Below, piece after piece: positions 3,541 through 37,269 of a DNA stretch of 39,632 bases. The first letter of the stretch is position 1. The number at the start of each line of letters is the position of its first letter. Origin of the DNA: a virus; IMG/VR virus record IMGVR_UViG_3300005613_000172, positions 1-39,632 of that record; one strand, 5' to 3'. The translations under genes were made by a program, and so were the position numbers. The notes under the pieces are model-generated. The model had not been told where the DNA came from. It did no database searches and was given only the letters and a program-made list of their open reading frames with translations.

Positions 3541-4410
3541 ATGAAAGCGGCGTGGCTGTTCATTCAAGATGTGGTCCTGTGGATCAAGCGACGGTGGGGC
3601 TGGCTCTCTTGGCCCATCGCCGGCCAGGGGGATGGCATGGTGGTCAACCCCGCCTCTGCCTGGAAGGTGAACGTCAGGAAGCGGCTGTCAGCCTGCGATA
3701 ACCGCCCTGGTCTCGGTAAAATCTACGTAACAGTGCTAGACGAGAAGGGCGTGCCTCTGAGCGGTGTCAAGGCACGCTTCGGCATTGAGGCATCCCAGGG
3801 CAGGGCCTACGATCATCCCGACACTTGGGGATTGACTGATGAGCGAGGCTGCGTGGAATGGGACCACCTCGGCGTGCCCGCTCGGTACCTGCTGTGGATG
3901 GAAGGCGACGAGATCCCTCTCATCGAGAACATCCGAACCGACCTGGGGTATGAGTACTGCGAGGGCTGGCGGCCCGTGAACAGGCCAGGCGTCTACTCCT
4001 ACCAGTGCGAGATCCAACGGAAGGGTGCGGAGGAGCAATACCAGGCCCCCATCGCCTCTGACGTGCAAATCAAAGTGGTAGACGCGGAAGAGGACGAGGG
4101 CTATGCTGGCGTGACTGTTACCTGCAGGACGGATAGGGTATGCCAAGTACAAGCCCGCTGGGGCGTAGTCTCCGAAGGGGTCGGGCCAGGTGGTGACTTG
4201 CAAGAAGTGTGTGATCCGTTCTCTGCTGGCGGATTTCATGGTGGGATTATCGAGCCAGGAACGGAACACTATATTAGTCTCGGCGATATTTGGTATTCAC
4301 ACGACGCACCGATCAAGTTCTGCCTGACGGTTGTGGCGTGGGAGCCACAGTACCGTGACATCCCACGGTGCTACGGCATAAGCCCCACTGTCCGCTTCAC
4401 CGTACCGTAG
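3541..4410 (+). CDS. Ig-like/carboxypeptidase-regulatory-domain protein, 289 aa
   Basis: ATG at 3541 is chosen because GAGAGGAGGG lies 4-5 nt before it. Residues about 55-120 look like a beta-sandwich of the carboxypeptidase regulatory/Ig-like type: KIYVTVLDEKGVPLSGVKARF, then WGLTDERGCVEWDHLGVPARY. A second beta domain follows (SDVQIKVVDAEEDEGYAGV). Such folds commonly bind sugars or decorate surfaces. No signal peptide or catalytic motif is seen. It opens a short rightward operon with holin-like genes, so a role at the cell envelope, perhaps lysis-related, is possible but unproved. Confidence 0.7.
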   Translation: MKAAWLFIQDVVLWIKRRWGWLSWPIAGQGDGMVVNPASAWKVNVRKRLSACDNRPGLGKIYVTVLDEKGVPLSGVKARFGIEASQGRAYDHPDTWGLTDERGCVEWDHLGVPARYLLWMEGDEIPLIENIRTDLGYEYCEGWRPVNRPGVYSYQCEIQRKGAEEQYQAPIASDVQIKVVDAEEDEGYAGVTVTCRTDRVCQVQARWGVVSEGVGPGGDLQEVCDPFSAGGFHGGIIEPGTEHYISLGDIWYSHDAPIKFCLTVVAWEPQYRDIPRCYGISPTVRFTVP

Positions 4411-16508: not shown

Positions 16509-16967
16509 ATGAGACCGAGTTTTCAGGATGATTACAAGTTCGTTCTTGGCCAGGAGTTGGTCGAGACGGCATTGAACAACAATACGGCATATCCCACGAC
16601 GGCCAGCTACATTGACGTGACAGGCTACGAATGGGTAGAGGTCATTATCCACCTGGGCACCCTGGCTGACGCGGTGGTCTTTACCCTGAAGCAGACCGAT
16701 GGGGTATCGGGATCAACCCTGGACACCATTGACACGGCCAACTGCAAAAAGACGGTGGCGACCGCCGATGCTGGGCAAATCATCTCCATGCACCTCCAGA
16801 CCGAGCAACTGGCTGCTGACCATCACTTCGTTACCTGCTACGTGTCTAGTGTGTCGGGGTCGGACTACGCCGACATCATCTACCTGCTGGGCGGGGCGCG
16901 GCATCTGCCCGTCACGCAGGCAACGGCGGTGTGTCCATCGGATAACCAGTTGATCAAGGCTGGATAG
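16509..16967 (+). CDS. Putative head decoration/virion protein, 152 aa
   Basis: ATG at 16509 (MRPSFQDDYKFVLGQELVET) follows AGGAGG. The sequence is beta-rich (YIDVTGYEWVEVIIHLGTLA, VFTLKQTD) with no catalytic motif, matching a class of small virion proteins encoded directly after the capsid in several phages. Decoration of the capsid surface is the likely role. Its TAG overlaps the GTG start of the sulfotransferase. Confidence 0.6.
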   Translation: MRPSFQDDYKFVLGQELVETALNNNTAYPTTASYIDVTGYEWVEVIIHLGTLADAVVFTLKQTDGVSGSTLDTIDTANCKKTVATADAGQIISMHLQTEQLAADHHFVTCYVSSVSGSDYADIIYLLGGARHLPVTQATAVCPSDNQLIKAG

Positions 16968-17782
16968 TGGATGAGGAGCGGGTAGCCTGGGACTTGCAGG
17001 CCAAATGGGTGATAGTCGGGTTTCCAAAGGCCGGCACCCACCTGGCAGCGTCCATGATCGCGCCGCTCGCGAAGCCTATGCAGAGCACCATGTCTGGCAA
17101 AGCTTGGGCTTCGGCCTTCAACGATGCGCTGACCCACGAGGATCGGCGGCTATCGGTAGTAGCCTGGCAACTGTCGGAGCTACAGCCGGGCCGCTACTTC
17201 AAGGCCCACAGCGGGCACAGCCAAGACCTGGAGGCATTCCTGTGGTTCTTGGGGGCGTGCGTGATATTCGTCTACCGAGATCCACGGGACGTGGCCGTGA
17301 GCCTGCTGTATCACGTCCTGAGTGAGAAGGATAGCCTGATCCACTCAGGACGTGACAAGCTCATGGCCCTAGGCGGTAAGGCTGAAATTCTGAAGGCAAT
17401 CATCGGCGGGATAGACGGCTATCCTGGCGTGATGGACAGGTGGGCGGCGTATGCTCCCTGGCCATCCGTTCCGTGGGTGTTCAAGTTCAGATTCGAGGAG
17501 GCAATTGCCAGCCCTGAGCGTGTGGCGGATGACTTGGTTCGCCATGCGCTGGGCAGGCTGGGCGAAGTGTTCGGGCTGCGGTTCTCGCAACCAGACACCG
17601 CTGAGCTAGTCCAGCAAATGGTGGCCTCGGCGGGTGACCGAGAGGCCAGTATGACCTACCGCGCAGGGCGGATCGGCGATTGGCGAGACGAGTTCAGCGA
17701 CGAACACAGAGAACTGTTCAAACAAACAGACAAGGCCGGTTGGCTCGCCAAGCTCGGCTATGAGCAAGGCGGCGACTGGTAA
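16967..17782 (+). CDS. PAPS-dependent sulfotransferase, 271 aa
   Basis: The cytosolic-type sulfotransferase fold is clear: the 5'-phosphosulfate-binding loop VGFPKAGTHL (residues 17-26), the 3'-phosphate-binding YRDPRDVAVSLLYH (103-116), and near the C-terminus TYRAGRIGDWRDEFSDEH, the RxGxxGDW motif contacting PAPS. It would move sulfate from PAPS to a hydroxyl on a protein, glycan or lipid. GTG at 16967 overlaps the upstream stop (TAGTG), so translation is coupled to the decoration-like gene. A sulfotransferase in a head operon is unusual; the substrate may be a virion protein, the adjacent lipoprotein or host surface sugar. Confidence 0.88.
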   Translation: MDEERVAWDLQAKWVIVGFPKAGTHLAASMIAPLAKPMQSTMSGKAWASAFNDALTHEDRRLSVVAWQLSELQPGRYFKAHSGHSQDLEAFLWFLGACVIFVYRDPRDVAVSLLYHVLSEKDSLIHSGRDKLMALGGKAEILKAIIGGIDGYPGVMDRWAAYAPWPSVPWVFKFRFEEAIASPERVADDLVRHALGRLGEVFGLRFSQPDTAELVQQMVASAGDREASMTYRAGRIGDWRDEFSDEHRELFKQTDKAGWLAKLGYEQGGDW

Positions 17783-22125: not shown

Positions 22126-22339
22126 CATCAGGTGGGGACCCGTCTTCACCCTCGACGCGGGCCAGGAGTTCACTGAGGCTGACTTGCTGCCAGGTATGGG
22201 GGCGGCGCTGGCGAAGTGGCAACGGGTGGGGGCGGTGGTAGAGGTTGAGGACGAGAAGGCTGGGCTTGTAGAGGAAATAGAGACAGAAGTACCGCCAGCA
22301 ATAGAAGACGATGCTGGCGGTACAAAGGCAGGCGGGTAG
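22067..22339 (+). CDS. Hypothetical protein before the inserted module, 90 aa
   Basis: ATG at 22067 (MAKKTRRQRSQPQRYKTVYD) is set by GGAGGTGGAG. A basic N-terminus leads to a beta region (IRWGPVFTLDAGQEFTEADL) and an acidic end (EVEDEKAGLVEEIETEVPPA). Its stop codon lies inside copy A of the structured repeat at 22331-22384, so the repeat supplies the last codons; the original end of the gene may have been replaced by the insertion. Confidence 0.6.
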   Translation: MAKKTRRQRSQPQRYKTVYDIRWGPVFTLDAGQEFTEADLLPGMGAALAKWQRVGAVVEVEDEKAGLVEEIETEVPPAIEDDAGGTKAGG

Positions 22340-22384
22340 CTCAGCAATATTTAGGATAACATAATCCATAGGGGCGAACCCGCC
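22331..22384. repeat. Hairpin-closed repeat, copy A
   Basis: GGCGGG and CCCGCC close a 42-nt core that begins TAGCTCAGC, contains TTAGGATAACA, and ends GGGGCGAA. An inner GGAT/ATCC stem can form. This copy lies on the 3' side of the HNH gene (which reads leftward) and overlaps the stop of the upstream phage gene, so it marks the left border of the inserted module. Four more copies lie at 23309-23560. Confidence 0.85.
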
Positions 22385-22385
22385 A

Positions 22386-22441
22386 TGACTGGCAGCGCAC
22401 AGTTTTACAGGTGGACATTAAACCTGAGGGCAAGCCAGTCA
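22386..22441 (-). other. Two-level stem-loop over the HNH gene stop codon
   Basis: TGACTGGC (22386-22393) pairs with GCCAGTCA (22434-22441), enclosing a second stem CAGGT (22408-22412) with ACCTG (22422-22426). The outer arm includes the TGA of the HNH gene, and repeat copy A starts one base beyond. It could be a terminator, an RNA-processing site or part of the element end. Confidence 0.6.
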
Positions 22442-23290
22442 CTCAATCCAGTGTTCAGGAAACACCTTAGTCTCGGCGTGGGCTTGTCCAGTTGGCAGAT
22501 TGCGGCAATCCATCCAAGCCAGCCATAAGCACCTTACGAAATCTTTAGCAACACGGCGCATGGCCCGTTTATGCGGTCGCCACTTCGGTTCAGGGCCATC
22601 GCGCTCGACATAATAGGCTTTGTACTCATCGTAAAGCTGGCGGCCATAGCAACCCTTGATCTTTACAAATTGAGAACTGACTTTATAGAGCGCCATCCGC
22701 AAACTCCCATTCCAATTCGCTCTCTGGCCTTTCTTGCGGCGCGGGGCTTCACCGTCAAGAACGTGTTCACCGCAATAGGCCCACAACTGGCCGACGGTAT
22801 TGAATCGTTCGGGACTACCCAGGTCTGCCATGAGGGAAGCAGAAAGCAACGGGCCAATACCTTTGACGTGTTTTAACCAGGTGTTGTAGAAGGGATCAAT
22901 CTTGAGCATGGCCTGAATGTACTTCTTGAGCTTCGCTTCCGTTTCCTTAATGTCCTTCAGGGCTTGACGGGCATAGCTGACGGGAAGGCCCAGGCGCTCA
23001 TAAGCCCCGATGCGGTTTGATAGCGCTTTGCGGTGATCCTGGACGGCATAAAACTCACGGGTCAAGAGTTTCAGTTCATTCATATCCGCGGTTATGCCAT
23101 GCTCAGCGTCGTGACAGAGCTTGCAGGCCGGGACCAGGTTGGCCGGGGCGTTGTTGCTGTGGTTGTGGTCAAGGTGGTGAACGTCTGAGGCTTTGCGGGT
23201 ACATCCCTCGGCGGCGCAGGTTTGCTTGCCCTCACGGATTGATTGGCGAAGGTCAGCGACGGACAGGGCGTTGCCGTTATGCCAGTTCAT
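22439..23290 (-). CDS. HNH nuclease fused to IS110-type Transposase_20 domain, 283 aa
   Basis: Residues 25-64 are a zinc-bound HNH motif: C25-x4-C30, H38 H39, N51, then CKLCHDAEHG. After a helical linker (REFYAVQDHRKALSNRIGAY) comes a Transposase_20 helix-hairpin-helix (~140-185): KGIGPLLSASLMADLGSPER, then FNTVGQLWAYCG, followed by APRRKKGQRANWNGSLR. The RuvC-like DEDD domain of true IS110 recombinases is absent, and the usual QSG serine site is replaced. So cutting would rest on the HNH, with the second half binding nucleic acid. The gene points against the late operon and is flanked by structured repeats. Homing endonuclease-like mobility is likely. Confidence 0.85.
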   Translation of the reverse strand: MNWHNGNALSVADLRQSIREGKQTCAAEGCTRKASDVHHLDHNHSNNAPANLVPACKLCHDAEHGITADMNELKLLTREFYAVQDHRKALSNRIGAYERLGLPVSYARQALKDIKETEAKLKKYIQAMLKIDPFYNTWLKHVKGIGPLLSASLMADLGSPERFNTVGQLWAYCGEHVLDGEAPRRKKGQRANWNGSLRMALYKVSSQFVKIKGCYGRQLYDEYKAYYVERDGPEPKWRPHKRAMRRVAKDFVRCLWLAWMDCRNLPTGQAHAETKVFPEHWIE

Positions 23291-23308
23291 TTGTGATTCC
23301 TTTCTGTG

Positions 23309-23360
23309 AATGATAGCTCACCAAGTGTATGGGTGACAGGCCAACAATGGGCGAACCATT
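23309..23360. repeat. Hairpin-closed repeat, copy E (divergent)
   Basis: AATGA and CCATT enclose a 42-nt core starting TAGCTCACC and ending GGGCGAA. Four of five stem pairs form despite a sequence different from the other copies, the remaining position being A opposite C. It begins 18 nt upstream of the HNH start codon. Confidence 0.75.
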
Positions 23361-23370
23361 CTCAGTAATG

Positions 23371-23425
23371 GGCGGGTAGCTTAACTCTGGCAGGGGATGG
23401 CAAGGCGTTCAAGGGCGAACCCGCC
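23371..23425. repeat. Hairpin-closed repeat, copy B
   Basis: GGCGGG and CCCGCC enclose a 43-nt core that starts TAGCTTA, contains GGGGATGGCA and ends GGGCGAA. The core centre is the most diverged of the five copies, while the ends are kept. Confidence 0.8.
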
Positions 23426-23439
23426 GATGATGCGATTTT

Positions 23440-23491
23440 GCGGGTAGCTCACTATAATTAAGGATAACAGCAGTAGTTAGGGCGAACCCGC
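23440..23491. repeat. Hairpin-closed repeat, copy C
   Basis: GCGGG and CCCGC enclose a 42-nt core (TAGCTCACT, AAGGATAACA, GGGCGAA). An inner stem TAATTA with TAGTTA (one G-T pair) is possible in this copy. Confidence 0.85.
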
Positions 23492-23508
23492 TTTGAAAGC
23501 TAATTTGT

Positions 23509-23560
23509 GTGGGTAGCTCAGCAGTACTTAGGATAACAAAGGCCATAGGGGCGAACCCAC
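23509..23560. repeat. Hairpin-closed repeat, copy D
   Basis: GTGGG and CCCAC enclose a 42-nt core (TAGCTCAGC, TTAGGATAACA, GGGGCGAA). Against copy C, one stem base changed on each side and pairing is kept, a compensatory change. The core is closest to copy A. Confidence 0.85.
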
Positions 23561-23574
23561 TGACAAACAAAGAA

Positions 23575-23661
23575 GCCCCCGCTCTCCTGGCGGTCGTCGC
23601 GAGACAGACCCGTGGAGATTGGGGGCACAAAAAGAACCGCCGAACGGGTCTACTGTCTCGC
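23575..23661 (-). ncRNA. Putative knotted RNA at the 5' end of the HNH leader
   Basis: Three long-range pairings interleave: GCCCCC...CTCC (23575-23587) with GGAG...GGGGGC (23614-23626); GGCGGT (23589-23594) with ACCGCC (23636-23641); and a 15-bp arm (23599-23613) with 23644-23661, broken by a 3-nt bulge. The order is a-b-c-a'-b'-c', so they form a pseudoknot or alternative folds. A leftward transcript would begin almost exactly at the outer arm. Functional class is unknown; DNA-level palindrome function is an alternative. Confidence 0.5.
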
Positions 23662-23668
23662 AAATATA

Positions 23669-23696
23669 AGTATACGGGTTTCGAGAGATTTGTCAA
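23669..23696 (-). promoter_or_regulatory. Likely sigma-70 promoter for the HNH gene and its leader
   Basis: On the minus strand TTGACA (23691-23696), 16-nt spacer, TATACT (23669-23674). A transcript would start near 23662, at the outer arm of the knotted block, then cross copies D, C, B and E before the HNH gene. Confidence 0.65.
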
Positions 23697-23726
23697 GTTA
23701 GGAAACGCTAAACAGGAGGTAGAGAA

Positions 23727-34409: not shown

Positions 34410-35939
34410 ATGCCTTTAAGAAATCCACTTCATTTATTGGACGAAGACGACATGGCTTCTGATTCTGCTGCGGCAGTGGCTACTCAGCAAAGCATCAAGG
34501 CTTACGTGGACGCACAACGGTATTACGGCTTGACCTGGGACGAGGACGATGCTGCCGACACCTATGCGCGAACAGGGATGCTGGCAGGTATAGCCGTTGG
34601 CAGTTCACCTGGTGACGCTGCATTGCCTATTCACGCACGGAGGCGGCGTTGTGTTCTCAGTGACGCTGGTGAGGTGCAGTACTATCTCAACCCGAACGAT
34701 AGCACCAAGAAGGTAGACGGTAGTGCATCTGACCTGACAGGCGCAGACGGCCAGGTTATGGTGGAGATTCCGTGCTTCTGGTACAGACATTCGTACTCTG
34801 GCACGACCCACCGTTGGGACATCAGCGAGTTTCCATTGCCTGGATTCGCTCGCCATCCAGCCTTTGTCAAGAACGGCGCAAACGTAGACTTTCGCTACAT
34901 AGGTGCTTATGAGGGCGTGCTGTACGACACCTCCGAAAGCAAATACGTGAACGGGCTATACTTGCCGTCGGACGCAAGCTACAAAATGACGTTCACAAAC
35001 GCCGACGACAAGATTCAGTCGGACACATTGACACATCCCTTTACCAATCTTGAGGTGGGTGTGGACAAAGTTGTAGTCAGCGGTACGGTGAACAACAACG
35101 GGACGTATGATATAGTTACACAGGGTGACGATTTTATCACTATCGGCGCAGGTGGGACGCTGACAAACGAAGCCAATGTTGCTTGTGTGATTCAGACGCA
35201 ACGGGATTGGACGGCGACCACTGGGGACGTGCTAGGTTCTGTTTCAGGCAAAGCGCCGATGAACTACGGCACGCGGGCCAACTTCCGTGCTGCGGCGGCC
35301 AACCGTGGTACGGGCTGGCGGCAGCTTGATTTCTACCTGGCGTCGGCTGACCAATTGCTCTACCTGGTGGAATATGCTGATTTCTACTCACAGTCCATGA
35401 TTGGTAACGGGCTGACCGACTGGACTGCTGGTTGGCCTGCATGGAACAACTACAATCCAATCGAGACAACTGGGAACAGCAACGGTGACGGAGACGTGAC
35501 TGCTAATACAAGTGGCGGCGACGCTACTGCTGGTTCGTACATGAGCTATCGCGGCATCGAGAACTGGTTTGGGCATATCTGGCAGTGGGTTGATGGGTTC
35601 AACATCAACAGCAACGTGCCATACTTCTCGAACACCGACACGGACTTCGCTGATGATACCACTGCGAACTATGACGATCCTGGAATAGAGTTGGCAAGTT
35701 CCAATGAGTATCAAAATACACTAGAGCAGATAGACGAGGGATTCCTGCCAGCAAGTGTTGGTAATCCCGGCACTGCAACGACCAAAATTACTGATTACTA
35801 CTATCAAAATAGCGGTTGGCGGGTTACGTGCCTGGGTGGGAATGCATCGAACGGTGCGCGTGCTGGCGGGTTCTGTTGGCATCTGGCTAGCGCCTCTTCC
35901 ACTCTGTGTCGGTATATTGGTGGTCGGGTCTCATATTAG
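34410..35939 (+). CDS. DGR variable protein, C-type-lectin-like receptor-binding protein, 509 aa
   Basis: The N-terminal ~60 residues (ASDSAAAVATQQSIKAYVDA) are typical of phage tail-fibre anchors. The C-terminal ~250 residues show the C-type-lectin/formylglycine-enzyme-like fold of DGR targets: GTGWRQLDFYLASADQLLYL, GIENWFGHIWQWVDGFNINS, and SGWRVTCLGGNASNGARAGG. The last 40 codons (residues 468-507) are the variable repeat, matching the downstream template with changes only at template adenines. This surface probably touches the host receptor. Two nt separate it from the upstream fibre gene. Confidence 0.92.
   Translation: MPLRNPLHLLDEDDMASDSAAAVATQQSIKAYVDAQRYYGLTWDEDDAADTYARTGMLAGIAVGSSPGDAALPIHARRRRCVLSDAGEVQYYLNPNDSTKKVDGSASDLTGADGQVMVEIPCFWYRHSYSGTTHRWDISEFPLPGFARHPAFVKNGANVDFRYIGAYEGVLYDTSESKYVNGLYLPSDASYKMTFTNADDKIQSDTLTHPFTNLEVGVDKVVVSGTVNNNGTYDIVTQGDDFITIGAGGTLTNEANVACVIQTQRDWTATTGDVLGSVSGKAPMNYGTRANFRAAAANRGTGWRQLDFYLASADQLLYLVEYADFYSQSMIGNGLTDWTAGWPAWNNYNPIETTGNSNGDGDVTANTSGGDATAGSYMSYRGIENWFGHIWQWVDGFNINSNVPYFSNTDTDFADDTTANYDDPGIELASSNEYQNTLEQIDEGFLPASVGNPGTATTKITDYYYQNSGWRVTCLGGNASNGARAGGFCWHLASASSTLCRYIGGRVSY
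35811..35930 (+). repeat. DGR variable repeat (VR)
   Basis: 120 nt aligned without gaps to the template repeat at 35980-36099. There are 25 differences, all at template adenines (17 A to G, 5 A to C, 3 A to T); all 83 non-adenine positions are identical. It encodes residues 468-507 of the target protein and ends nine nt before its stop codon. Confidence 0.96.
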
Positions 35940-35957: not shown

Positions 35958-36131
35958 GGTTTTCCATATCAAAACCACTAGCAGTTAGCGAGTTACGAAA
36001 CTAGGTGGGAATGCATCGAACAGTGCGAATGCTAGCGAGTTCTATTGGAATCTGAATAACACCTCTTCCAATCTGAATCAGAATATTGGTAGTCAGGTCA
36101 GCTTATTTGCAATCTACAAATATGGAAAACC
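35958..36131 (+). ncRNA. DGR template RNA region with 12-bp inverted repeat enclosing TR
   Basis: GGTTTTCCATAT (35958-35969) is perfectly complementary to ATATGGAAAACC (36120-36131). The template repeat lies between them, so its RNA would be closed by a 12-bp helix. A small TGCC-TCTT-GGCA hairpin follows at 36134-36145. Confidence 0.8.
35980..36099 (+). repeat. DGR template repeat (TR)
   Basis: 120 nt with 37 adenines, many in AAT/AAC codon positions. In the VR frame it would read S-S-stop at its third codon (TAG, TGG in the VR), so the template is non-coding there. It lies 41 nt after the target stop codon and 114 nt before the reverse transcriptase. Confidence 0.96.
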
Positions 36132-36209
36132 GTGCCTCTTGGCAAAACAAAAAGCAAAACCCCATAAGTGTTGGTAGGTTAATTCTCGAAGACTCTGGGG
36201 CAAATAAGC
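36101..36209 (+). other. 10-bp inverted repeat linking TR end to RT start
   Basis: GCTTATTTGC (36101-36110), one base after the TR, is perfectly complementary to GCAAATAAGC (36200-36209), four bases before the reverse-transcriptase ATG. It crosses the 12-bp repeat at 35958/36131, giving pseudoknot topology, and could cover the RT ribosome site. Confidence 0.75.
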
Positions 36210-36213
36210 AGCA

Positions 36214-37269
36214 ATGAAACGACACGGTTATTTGTACGAAAAGATATGGGATATGGATAATATCCAAGAGGCCCACCGCAACGCGCAGCGTGGTAAGAAG
36301 CATTATCGCGAGGTACAGATGGTAAATGCAGACGAGGAGAAATGCCTGAATCAAATCCAAGCCATGCTGCGTGACAAGACATTCCGCAATTCAGAATACG
36401 AGGTGTTCACCAAGATTGATAGTGGCAAGGAACGAGAGATTTACAAGCTGCCATACTTCCCAGACAGGATCGTGCATCACTGTATCATGCAAGTACTTGA
36501 GCCTATCTGGATGAAGACACTCATTGCAGATACCTACTCGTCGCTGAAAGGTCGTGGTATTCACAAGGGCGTCAAGCGAGTGAAGTTGGCACTGCAAGAC
36601 AGGGAGAATACACAATACTGTTTGAAGCTTGACATCCGTAAATTCTACCCATCAGTTAACCACGGCATCTTGAAGTCTATCATCCGCAAGAAAATAAAAG
36701 ACCCTGACGTTCTGTGGTTGCTGGACGAGATCGTTGATTCAACTGAAAGCGGTGTGCCGATTGGCAACTATCTCAGTCAATACTTTGGCAACTTATACTT
36801 GGCATACTTCGACCACTGGATGAAAGAAGAAAAGCGTTGTAAGTACTACTTTCGCTATTGCGATGACGTAGTTGTGCTACATAGTGATAAGCAATTCTTA
36901 CACCAACTGTTTGAAGAAGTACAGGAATATCTATCTACCAACCTAAACTTGATAGTCAAATCCAATTATCAGGTATTCCCAGTAAACAAGCGTGGCATTG
37001 ACTTTCTAGGTTACAGATTCTTTCACGATTACACGCTTTTGCGTAAAAGTATTGCACAACGATTCAAGGCAAAGATACTGAAAATTAGACAGGGTTGGAA
37101 AAACATGAGGCCCAGCCAAATCGTGAATGGCATTATGAGTTACTGGGGTTGGATGAAGTATGGGAATTGCTTGAATCTTGCCAAGAAGCACATTGATAAG
37201 GAAATCAGGCAGATTGTGGCAGAGACATGTAAGGCTAATGGTATAAAGAATCCACTGAGGAGATTATAA
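36214..37269 (+). CDS. DGR reverse transcriptase, 351 aa
   Basis: All DGR-type signatures are present: the first catalytic Asp in CLKLDIRKFYPSVNH (D140), VPIGNYLSQYFGNLYL (183-189 IGNYLSQ, the SQ form that separates DGR enzymes from group II intron RTs), YCDD (215-218), and GIDFLGYRFFHDYTLLRKS. The thumb region ends SYWGWMKYGNCLNLAKKHI. It would copy the TR RNA with errors at adenines. The ATG at 36214 has no strong ribosome site and is flanked by an inverted repeat, so translation may be limited. The next gene starts on its stop codon. Confidence 0.95.
   Translation: MKRHGYLYEKIWDMDNIQEAHRNAQRGKKHYREVQMVNADEEKCLNQIQAMLRDKTFRNSEYEVFTKIDSGKEREIYKLPYFPDRIVHHCIMQVLEPIWMKTLIADTYSSLKGRGIHKGVKRVKLALQDRENTQYCLKLDIRKFYPSVNHGILKSIIRKKIKDPDVLWLLDEIVDSTESGVPIGNYLSQYFGNLYLAYFDHWMKEEKRCKYYFRYCDDVVVLHSDKQFLHQLFEEVQEYLSTNLNLIVKSNYQVFPVNKRGIDFLGYRFFHDYTLLRKSIAQRFKAKILKIRQGWKNMRPSQIVNGIMSYWGWMKYGNCLNLAKKHIDKEIRQIVAETCKANGIKNPLRRL

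What the first reader, a model, noticed from the sequence alone, without database searches (positions are those of the whole stretch)
22331..23700. HNH-Transposase_20 gene with five co-varying structured repeats: candidate new RNA-linked element
A nuclease that lacks the IS110 catalytic domain but keeps its helix-hairpin-helix part, joined to an HNH, is embedded antisense in the late operon. Five copies of one unit surround it: closing stem of 5-6 bp, then a core of 42 nt (43 in one copy) with TAGCTCA at the start, GG-T-RCA in the middle and GGGCGAA at the end. Stem bases differ between copies (GGCGGG, GCGGG, GTGGG, AATGA) but partners change with them. Four copies are spaced 62-69 nt in the leader, one lies after the gene. 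By analogy with IS110 bridge RNA and IscB omega RNA, the repeats could be guide or recognition RNAs; they could also be DNA binding sites for the enzyme.
Basis: partly seen in the sequence, partly recalled or inferred. Interest (0 to 1): 0.9.

Follow-up and report, generated by a model that had tools for sequence, protein, structure and literature searches.

The report
Phage TIGR-TasH with hairpin guide array
A bacterial or archaeal virus carries a small RNA-guided DNA cutter of the recently described TIGR-Tas kind (its nuclease TasH plus six hairpin guide RNAs), in a combination not described in the founding paper's text: the HNH-carrying version together with separate hairpin guides instead of the usual continuous repeat array.

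Summary
The gene (22439-23290, - strand) scores 152.7 bits against NCBIfam TIGR_Tas_endo (cut-off 100). Its predicted Nop domain fits TasR (Z 23.4) and TasH (Z about 20) cryo-EM structures better than IS110. An HNH lies in front of it, so it is a TasH. Closing stems co-vary; no spacer column is invariant. One lone, promoter-driven unit of the same make sits in another phage contig (L010) with no Tas gene in that contig. New in degree: the founding paper's TasH has a continuous 36-nt dual-repeat array, and stem-loop arrays named in its main text belong to nuclease-less TasA and inactive TasR. Here an HNH-Tas uses stem-loop units. No target was found; processing and cleavage are inferred.

The parts
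22439..23290 (-). tasH: 283-aa HNH + Nop-domain (Transposase_20) protein, TIGR-associated nuclease
   Evidence: NCBIfam NF052498 TIGR_Tas_endo 152.7 bits, cut-off 100; phmmer to TasR 9mty E 8e-30; AF2 model fits TasR Z 23.4 and TasH Z about 20
23096..23233 (-). HNH nuclease domain, residues about 20-65 (C25..C30, H38H39, N47/N51, C56..C59, H60)
   Evidence: PHROG HNH families E 1e-5 to 1e-2, NCBIfam YajD HNH 5e-5, Pfam HNH below cut-off; modelled with low confidence
22484..23092 (-). Nop domain (coiled coil + RNA-binding C-terminal part), residues about 67-269
   Evidence: pLDDT about 95; VIA-align Z 23.4 to 9mty over residues 69-269
23508..23561 (-). guide unit R5: spacer A CTATGGCCTT, spacer B TAAGTACTGC
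   Evidence: CM hit 63.4 bits, alignment A4
23439..23492 (-). guide unit R4: spacer A TAACTACTGC, spacer B TTAATTATAG
   Evidence: CM hit 61.5 bits
23371..23425 (-). guide unit R3 (43-nt core; last box D is UA, not UG): spacer A TTGAACGCCT, spacer B CTGCCAGAGT (or CCTGCCAGAG)
   Evidence: CM hit 52.7 bits
23308..23361 (-). guide unit R2: spacer A ATTGTTGGCC, spacer B ATACACTTGG
   Evidence: CM hit 55.2 bits
22387..22440 (-). guide unit R0, diverged sixth unit overlapping the tasH stop codon: spacer A TCAGGTTTAA, spacer B TGTAAAACTG
   Evidence: found by motif score and hairpin scan; E 0.0045 with a model built without it
22331..22384 (-). guide unit R1: spacer A CTATGGATTA, spacer B TAAATATTGC
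   Evidence: CM hit 68.8 bits
23669..23696 (-). sigma-70-like promoter TTGACA-16-TATACT (11/12) upstream of R5-R2 and tasH
   Evidence: consensus match only
23597..23663 (-). long leader hairpin between promoter and first unit; role unknown
   Evidence: hairpin scan and sequence

Best explanation
This is a phage-borne TIGR-Tas locus of the TasH type with a stem-loop guide array. A promoter on the - strand makes one transcript holding four hairpin guide units, the tasH message and two more units. A host RNase (inferred) frees each hairpin. A TasH dimer holds one hairpin by its two pairs of box C (CC) and box D (UG) segments. Spacer A (10 nt) pairs with one DNA strand and spacer B (10 nt) with the other strand of an adjoining site of about 20 bp (read on one strand as spacer A + reverse complement of spacer B), and the two HNH domains each cut the strand paired to their spacer. 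Shown here: protein family and fold, unit anatomy, co-varying stems, variable spacers, gene-strand orientation. Inferred from characterised relatives: transcription, processing, RNA binding, tandem-spacer targeting, cutting. The target, and so the biological purpose (most likely action against competing mobile DNA), is unknown.
For: Protein: NF052498 TIGR_Tas_endo 152.7 bits over the 100-bit cut-off, IS110 model 39.9 against cut-off 140; phmmer TasR E 8e-30, TasH E 4e-5; profile TasR 2e-65, TasH 5e-41, IS621 2e-5; model pLDDT 82 with Z 23.4 to TasR and about 20 to TasH against 17 to IS621 and 8-9 to Nop5/Prp31. RNA: on the gene strand each repeat reads CC - 10 nt - UG..CC - 10 nt - UG inside a stem (R3's last box is UA), the rule stated for TIGR units; all 16 invariant columns lie outside the two spacers; stem co-variation. 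Relatives: 18/36-nt dual-repeat arrays beside 13 relatives and 3-12 stem-loop units on the gene strand of most actinobacterial/actinophage relatives, with few on the other strand and 0-0.8 on average in shuffles. SpTasH (Salicola phage CGphi29) has its HNH in the same place. The L010 unit was matched at E 5e-12 by a model built without it and sits 11 nt after a 12/12 promoter reading the gene strand.
Against: No target was found in the phage itself, in annotated phages, or in viral contigs beyond chance. HNH confidence is moderate and its model is poor. R3 has a slightly broken box D and R0 is diverged, so some units may be decaying. No expression data exist. Plus-strand folds are as stable as gene-strand folds, so folding alone does not decide the strand; the strand rests on the box order, the promoter and the relatives.
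Confidence: 0.9

Rival explanations
1. The repeats are double-stranded DNA binding sites of the HNH protein (operator-like or homing-type sites), not RNA guides.
For: The protein carries a helix-hairpin-helix-like Transposase_20 domain and HNH; sites flank its own gene.
Against: A DNA site would conserve sequence, not pairing; here stem bases change in pairs, and two 10-nt stretches of fixed length vary freely between conserved boxes. The domain belongs to a family shown to bind guide RNA (PMC12045711).
Confidence: 0.04
2. A decaying or regulatory TIGR-Tas locus: guides and protein are still made but TasH only binds DNA (like TasA), for example to silence phage or host genes.
For: HNH is below Pfam cut-off and poorly modelled; R3 and R0 are diverged; nuclease-less TasA is common among relatives.
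Against: The zinc-binding Cys pairs and the HNH-like His/Asn/His are present in the sequence; four of six units match the box/spacer motif exactly.
Confidence: 0.15
3. A new type of RNA-linked transposon (IS110-like with HNH), with the repeats as bridge RNAs and the whole 22331-23561 stretch as the mobile unit.
For: Units lie at both ends of the stretch; distant kinship with IS110.
Against: No DEDD domain found; IS110 model far under its cut-off; no second copy in the genome; a unit is a single two-spacer loop, not the two-loop bridge RNA; the lone L010 unit lacks the gene.
Confidence: 0.02

Closest known systems
TIGR-TasH of Salicola phage CGphi29 (SpTIGR; PDB 21kl, 9w04 and others)
   Same: N-terminal HNH joined to a Nop domain at the same place; tandem-spacer guides beside the gene; phage-borne
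   Different: SpTIGR has a continuous 36-nt dual-repeat array after the gene; here guides are separate stem-closed hairpins before and after the gene, with different repeats and 10-nt spacers
TIGR stem-loop arrays (TasA of a Peromyscus gut contig; actinobacterial/actinophage Tas loci seen here)
   Different: Those named in the paper's main text belong to nuclease-less TasA or inactive TasR; here the protein has an HNH. Here the loop repeat is nearly constant (UGYYAYCC), which the paper describes for some stem-loop arrays as a possible intermediate to dual-repeat arrays
TIGR-TasR of a Thermoproteota archaeon (PDB 9mty)
   Same: Closest solved relative of the Nop domain (38% identity, Z 23.4); UG...CC(A) box logic
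   Different: RuvC nuclease, dual-repeat array, 9-nt spacers
IS110/IS1111 transposases with bridge RNA (IS621)
   Same: Homologous RNA-binding Nop-like domain (Transposase_20), Z 17
   Different: No DEDD domain, no mobility, no two-loop bridge RNA

Membership tests
TIGR-Tas | Tas protein with Nop domain, over a curated family cut-off | tested here: met
   NF052498 152.7 bits against cut-off 100; fold match to TasR/TasH
[quoted passage not shown]
   Six units CC-N10-UGnnnnCC-N10-UG on the gene strand (R3 ends in UA)
TIGR-Tas | Array RNA processed into guides bound by the protein | not testable with these tools
   needs small-RNA sequencing and pull-down
TIGR-Tas | tigRNA-directed DNA binding or cutting on both strands | not testable with these tools
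   biochemistry; no natural target found
TasH subtype | HNH nuclease N-terminal to the Nop domain | tested here: met
   PHROG/NCBIfam HNH matches and Cys/His pattern; Pfam below cut-off
TIGR stem-loop array type | Palindromic, variable closing stem in place of the edge repeat | tested here: met
   stem pairs co-vary, collapses when slid
TIGR dual-repeat array type | Continuous chain of edge/loop repeats at 18/36-nt steps | tested here: not met
   longest chain 4 in the window locus, equal to the shuffle maximum; 9-30 in true dual arrays
IS110/IS1111 transposon | DEDD (RuvC-like) domain and full-length IS110 match | tested here: not met
   no DEDD match; IS110 model 39.9 bits against cut-off 140
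OMEGA IscB / CRISPR Cas9 | omegaRNA or CRISPR RNA known to Rfam, RuvC plus HNH protein | tested here: not met
   no Rfam match in the locus up to E 5; no RuvC match in the protein

The most novel reading that the evidence does not exclude
The locus is a natural intermediate in TIGR evolution: an HNH-armed Tas, closer in sequence to dual-repeat Tas proteins than to the actinobacterial stem-loop clade, that works with stand-alone stem-closed guides keeping a dual-repeat-like loop repeat. This would show that array format and nuclease can be exchanged independently. The single promoter-driven unit in a Tas-less phage contig (L010) would then be a trans-acting guide that borrows another element's Tas protein.
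Probability: 0.25. Interest if true: 0.7.

Novelty: new variant of a known kind. Interest (0 to 1): 0.55.

Why it matters
TIGR-Tas systems are RNA-guided, PAM-free DNA binders and cutters related to snoRNPs and IS110; how array formats and nucleases combine, and what they target, is open. A compact TasH (283 aa) with separate, stem-closed guides is a useful test case: each guide is a self-contained RNA that should not depend on edge-repeat processing. Three spacers that are near-copies of one another (R1-B, R4-A, R5-B) give a rare handle on how spacers change and are exchanged between the A and B positions.

Tried and rejected
(1) Plus-strand RNA (tRNA-like start GGCGGGTAGCTCAG..., GCUC/GGGC stem with a G.U): looked good at first and folds as well as the gene strand, but box order, promoter and relatives all point to the - strand. 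(2) Known RNA families: no Rfam match in the locus. (3) Repeat-pattern hits in viral contigs: of 51 matches only L010 is a true unit; L061 and L062 are coding sequence, and L039 resembles hammerhead ribozymes by eye. (4) Single-protein search of viral contigs found nothing; alignments were needed. (5) Spacer targets: in the window and fetched loci no site with fewer than 4 mismatches outside the units; annotated phages one hit at E 4; R1/R5 in viral contigs none; R2 and R3 two 18-mer hits each, which I judge to be chance level. (6) Tree: the window Tas falls across a 100/99 branch from the actinobacterial stem-loop clade, but its exact place is not resolved (56/52), and sisterhood with SpTasH is not rejected (AU p 0.053), so a second HNH fusion is not claimed. 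My first AU test (p 1e-10) was badly posed because unlabelled rows lay inside the clade; I discarded it. (7) Single-sequence AlphaFold model was useless (pLDDT 47). (8) Family scans of 393 + 398 genomes in two phyla found only one further true Tas (dual-repeat, no HNH) and no HNH-Tas.

Full report
WHAT WAS CHECKED. The five repeats and the gene are present as described. On the gene strand the exact motif TTCGCCC-N10-TGYYAYCC-N10-TGAGCTA occurs four times in 39.6 kb and never in 100 dinucleotide shuffles; the fifth (R3) deviates by a one-base longer core and TAAGCTA. With all seven units, closing-stem pairs show changes on both sides at three positions; no shuffle of 500 reaches the number of such cells, and the signal vanishes when partners are slid.

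WHAT THE PROTEIN IS. The gene at 22439-23290 (-) has an N-terminal HNH (C25..C30, H38H39, N47/N51, C56..C59, H60; PHROGs 1e-5, NCBIfam YajD HNH 5e-5, Pfam under cut-off) and a Transposase_20 part over Pfam's cut-off. The decisive test is NCBIfam NF052498 'TIGR-Tas system RNA-guided endonuclease': 152.7 bits, cut-off 100; the IS110 model reaches only 39.9 of 140. Sequence searches of the PDB return TIGR-TasR 9mty (E 8e-30) and TasH 21kl (E 4e-5). An AlphaFold model from 21 relatives (pLDDT 82, Nop part about 95) matches 9mty at Z 23.4, TasH entries at about 20, IS621 at 17 and Nop5/Prp31 at 8-9.

WHAT THE REPEATS ARE. The founding paper (PMC12045711) states that TIGR guides have two 8-12-nt spacers flanked by box C (CCA) and box D (UG), in a continuous dual-repeat array or as stem-loop units with variable palindromic stems. 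Read on the gene strand, the window's units fit the second plan: stem, UUCG-CC(C), 10-nt spacer A, UG-UYAY-CC, 10-nt spacer B, UG-AGCUA, stem. All 16 invariant alignment columns lie outside the two spacers. A TTGACA-16-TATACT promoter on the - strand precedes the four leader units and tasH; the L010 unit starts 11 nt after a perfect 12/12 promoter in the same sense.

RELATIVES. Two viral-contig scans, one genome scan and the phage collection gave about 60 related loci. I scored each for both array types. Dual-repeat chains (9-30 links against 2-5 in shuffles of the same loci) lie beside L056, L080, L085, L116-L119, L123-L127 and the archaeal L140. Stem-loop units on the gene strand lie beside most actinobacterial and actinophage loci (3-12 units, few on the other strand, 0-0.8 on average in shuffles). 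L065 and L120, which are among the nearest relatives, showed neither type within the DNA held. SpTasH of Salicola phage CGphi29 (L127) has a dual-repeat array. Among all these loci only SpTasH and the window protein carry an HNH. So the window combines an HNH-Tas with stem-loop units; the paper's main text names stem-loop arrays for TasA and for inactive TasR and a dual-repeat array for TasH. Figures and supplement could not be read, so an undiscussed TasH with stem-loops there is possible.

TREE. On Nop domains, the dual-repeat and stem-loop relatives fall on either side of a 100/99 branch; the window protein lies on the dual-repeat side, at the base, with its exact position unresolved (56/52), and a sister relation to SpTasH is not rejected (p 0.053). 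Long branches limit this.

TARGETS. From the paper's statement that each spacer pairs with a different strand and that cutting leaves 8-nt 3' overhangs I derived the expected target as spacer A followed by the reverse complement of spacer B, gap 0-2. No convincing match exists in the window, L010's contig, annotated phages or viral contigs. Three spacers are near-copies (R4-A/R5-B 9 of 10; R1-B 8 of 10 to both; P 0.0006 in spacer shuffles), also between A and B positions, which fits the reported equivalence of the two positions. Their differences fall three bases apart, as synonymous codon changes would, but I could not test this.

VERDICT. The finding is real, its interpretation right in kind but not new in kind: a TIGR-TasH locus with a stem-loop array. 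What is inferred, not shown: expression, processing, loading, cutting and purpose.

Noticed in passing
35810-35930, 35979-36099, 36128-36214, 36214-37269: Diversity-generating retroelement: variable repeat at the 3' end of the C-type-lectin-like ORF 34410-35939, template repeat 169 bp downstream; all 25 mismatches are at template adenines, Rfam RT-17 RNA, reverse transcriptase.
   Followed up: yes
L010:4754-4807 (+) (same as L063:6175-6228): A single guide unit of the same consensus with its own 12/12 promoter, beside a divergent promoter pair in an inverted repeat, in a 37-kb phage contig with no Tas gene. It could be a trans-acting guide, or the Tas gene may lie outside the contig.
   Followed up: partly
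L067, L084, L089, L094, L098, L102, L108 (N-terminal parts of the predicted Tas ORFs): In actinobacterial/actinophage loci many stem-loop guide units lie inside the apparent N-terminal extension of the Tas reading frame: either the start codons are called too early, or guide units are also translated.
   Followed up: no
window 22331-23561, spacers R1-B, R4-A, R5-B: Spacers TAAATATTGC, TAACTACTGC and TAAGTACTGC are near-copies in different positions (A and B); their differences sit three bases apart, as in synonymous codon changes.
   Followed up: partly
23597-23663 (-): Long hairpin in the tasH leader between the promoter and the first guide unit; role unknown.
   Followed up: no
L039:3210-3275 and 3545-3610: Two hammerhead-ribozyme-like sequences (CGAAAC-stem-GTC ... 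CTGATGAG) about 330 bp apart in a phage contig, judged by eye only.
   Followed up: no
window 16967-17782: Phage-encoded sulfotransferase-like gene among the head/tail genes.
   Followed up: no
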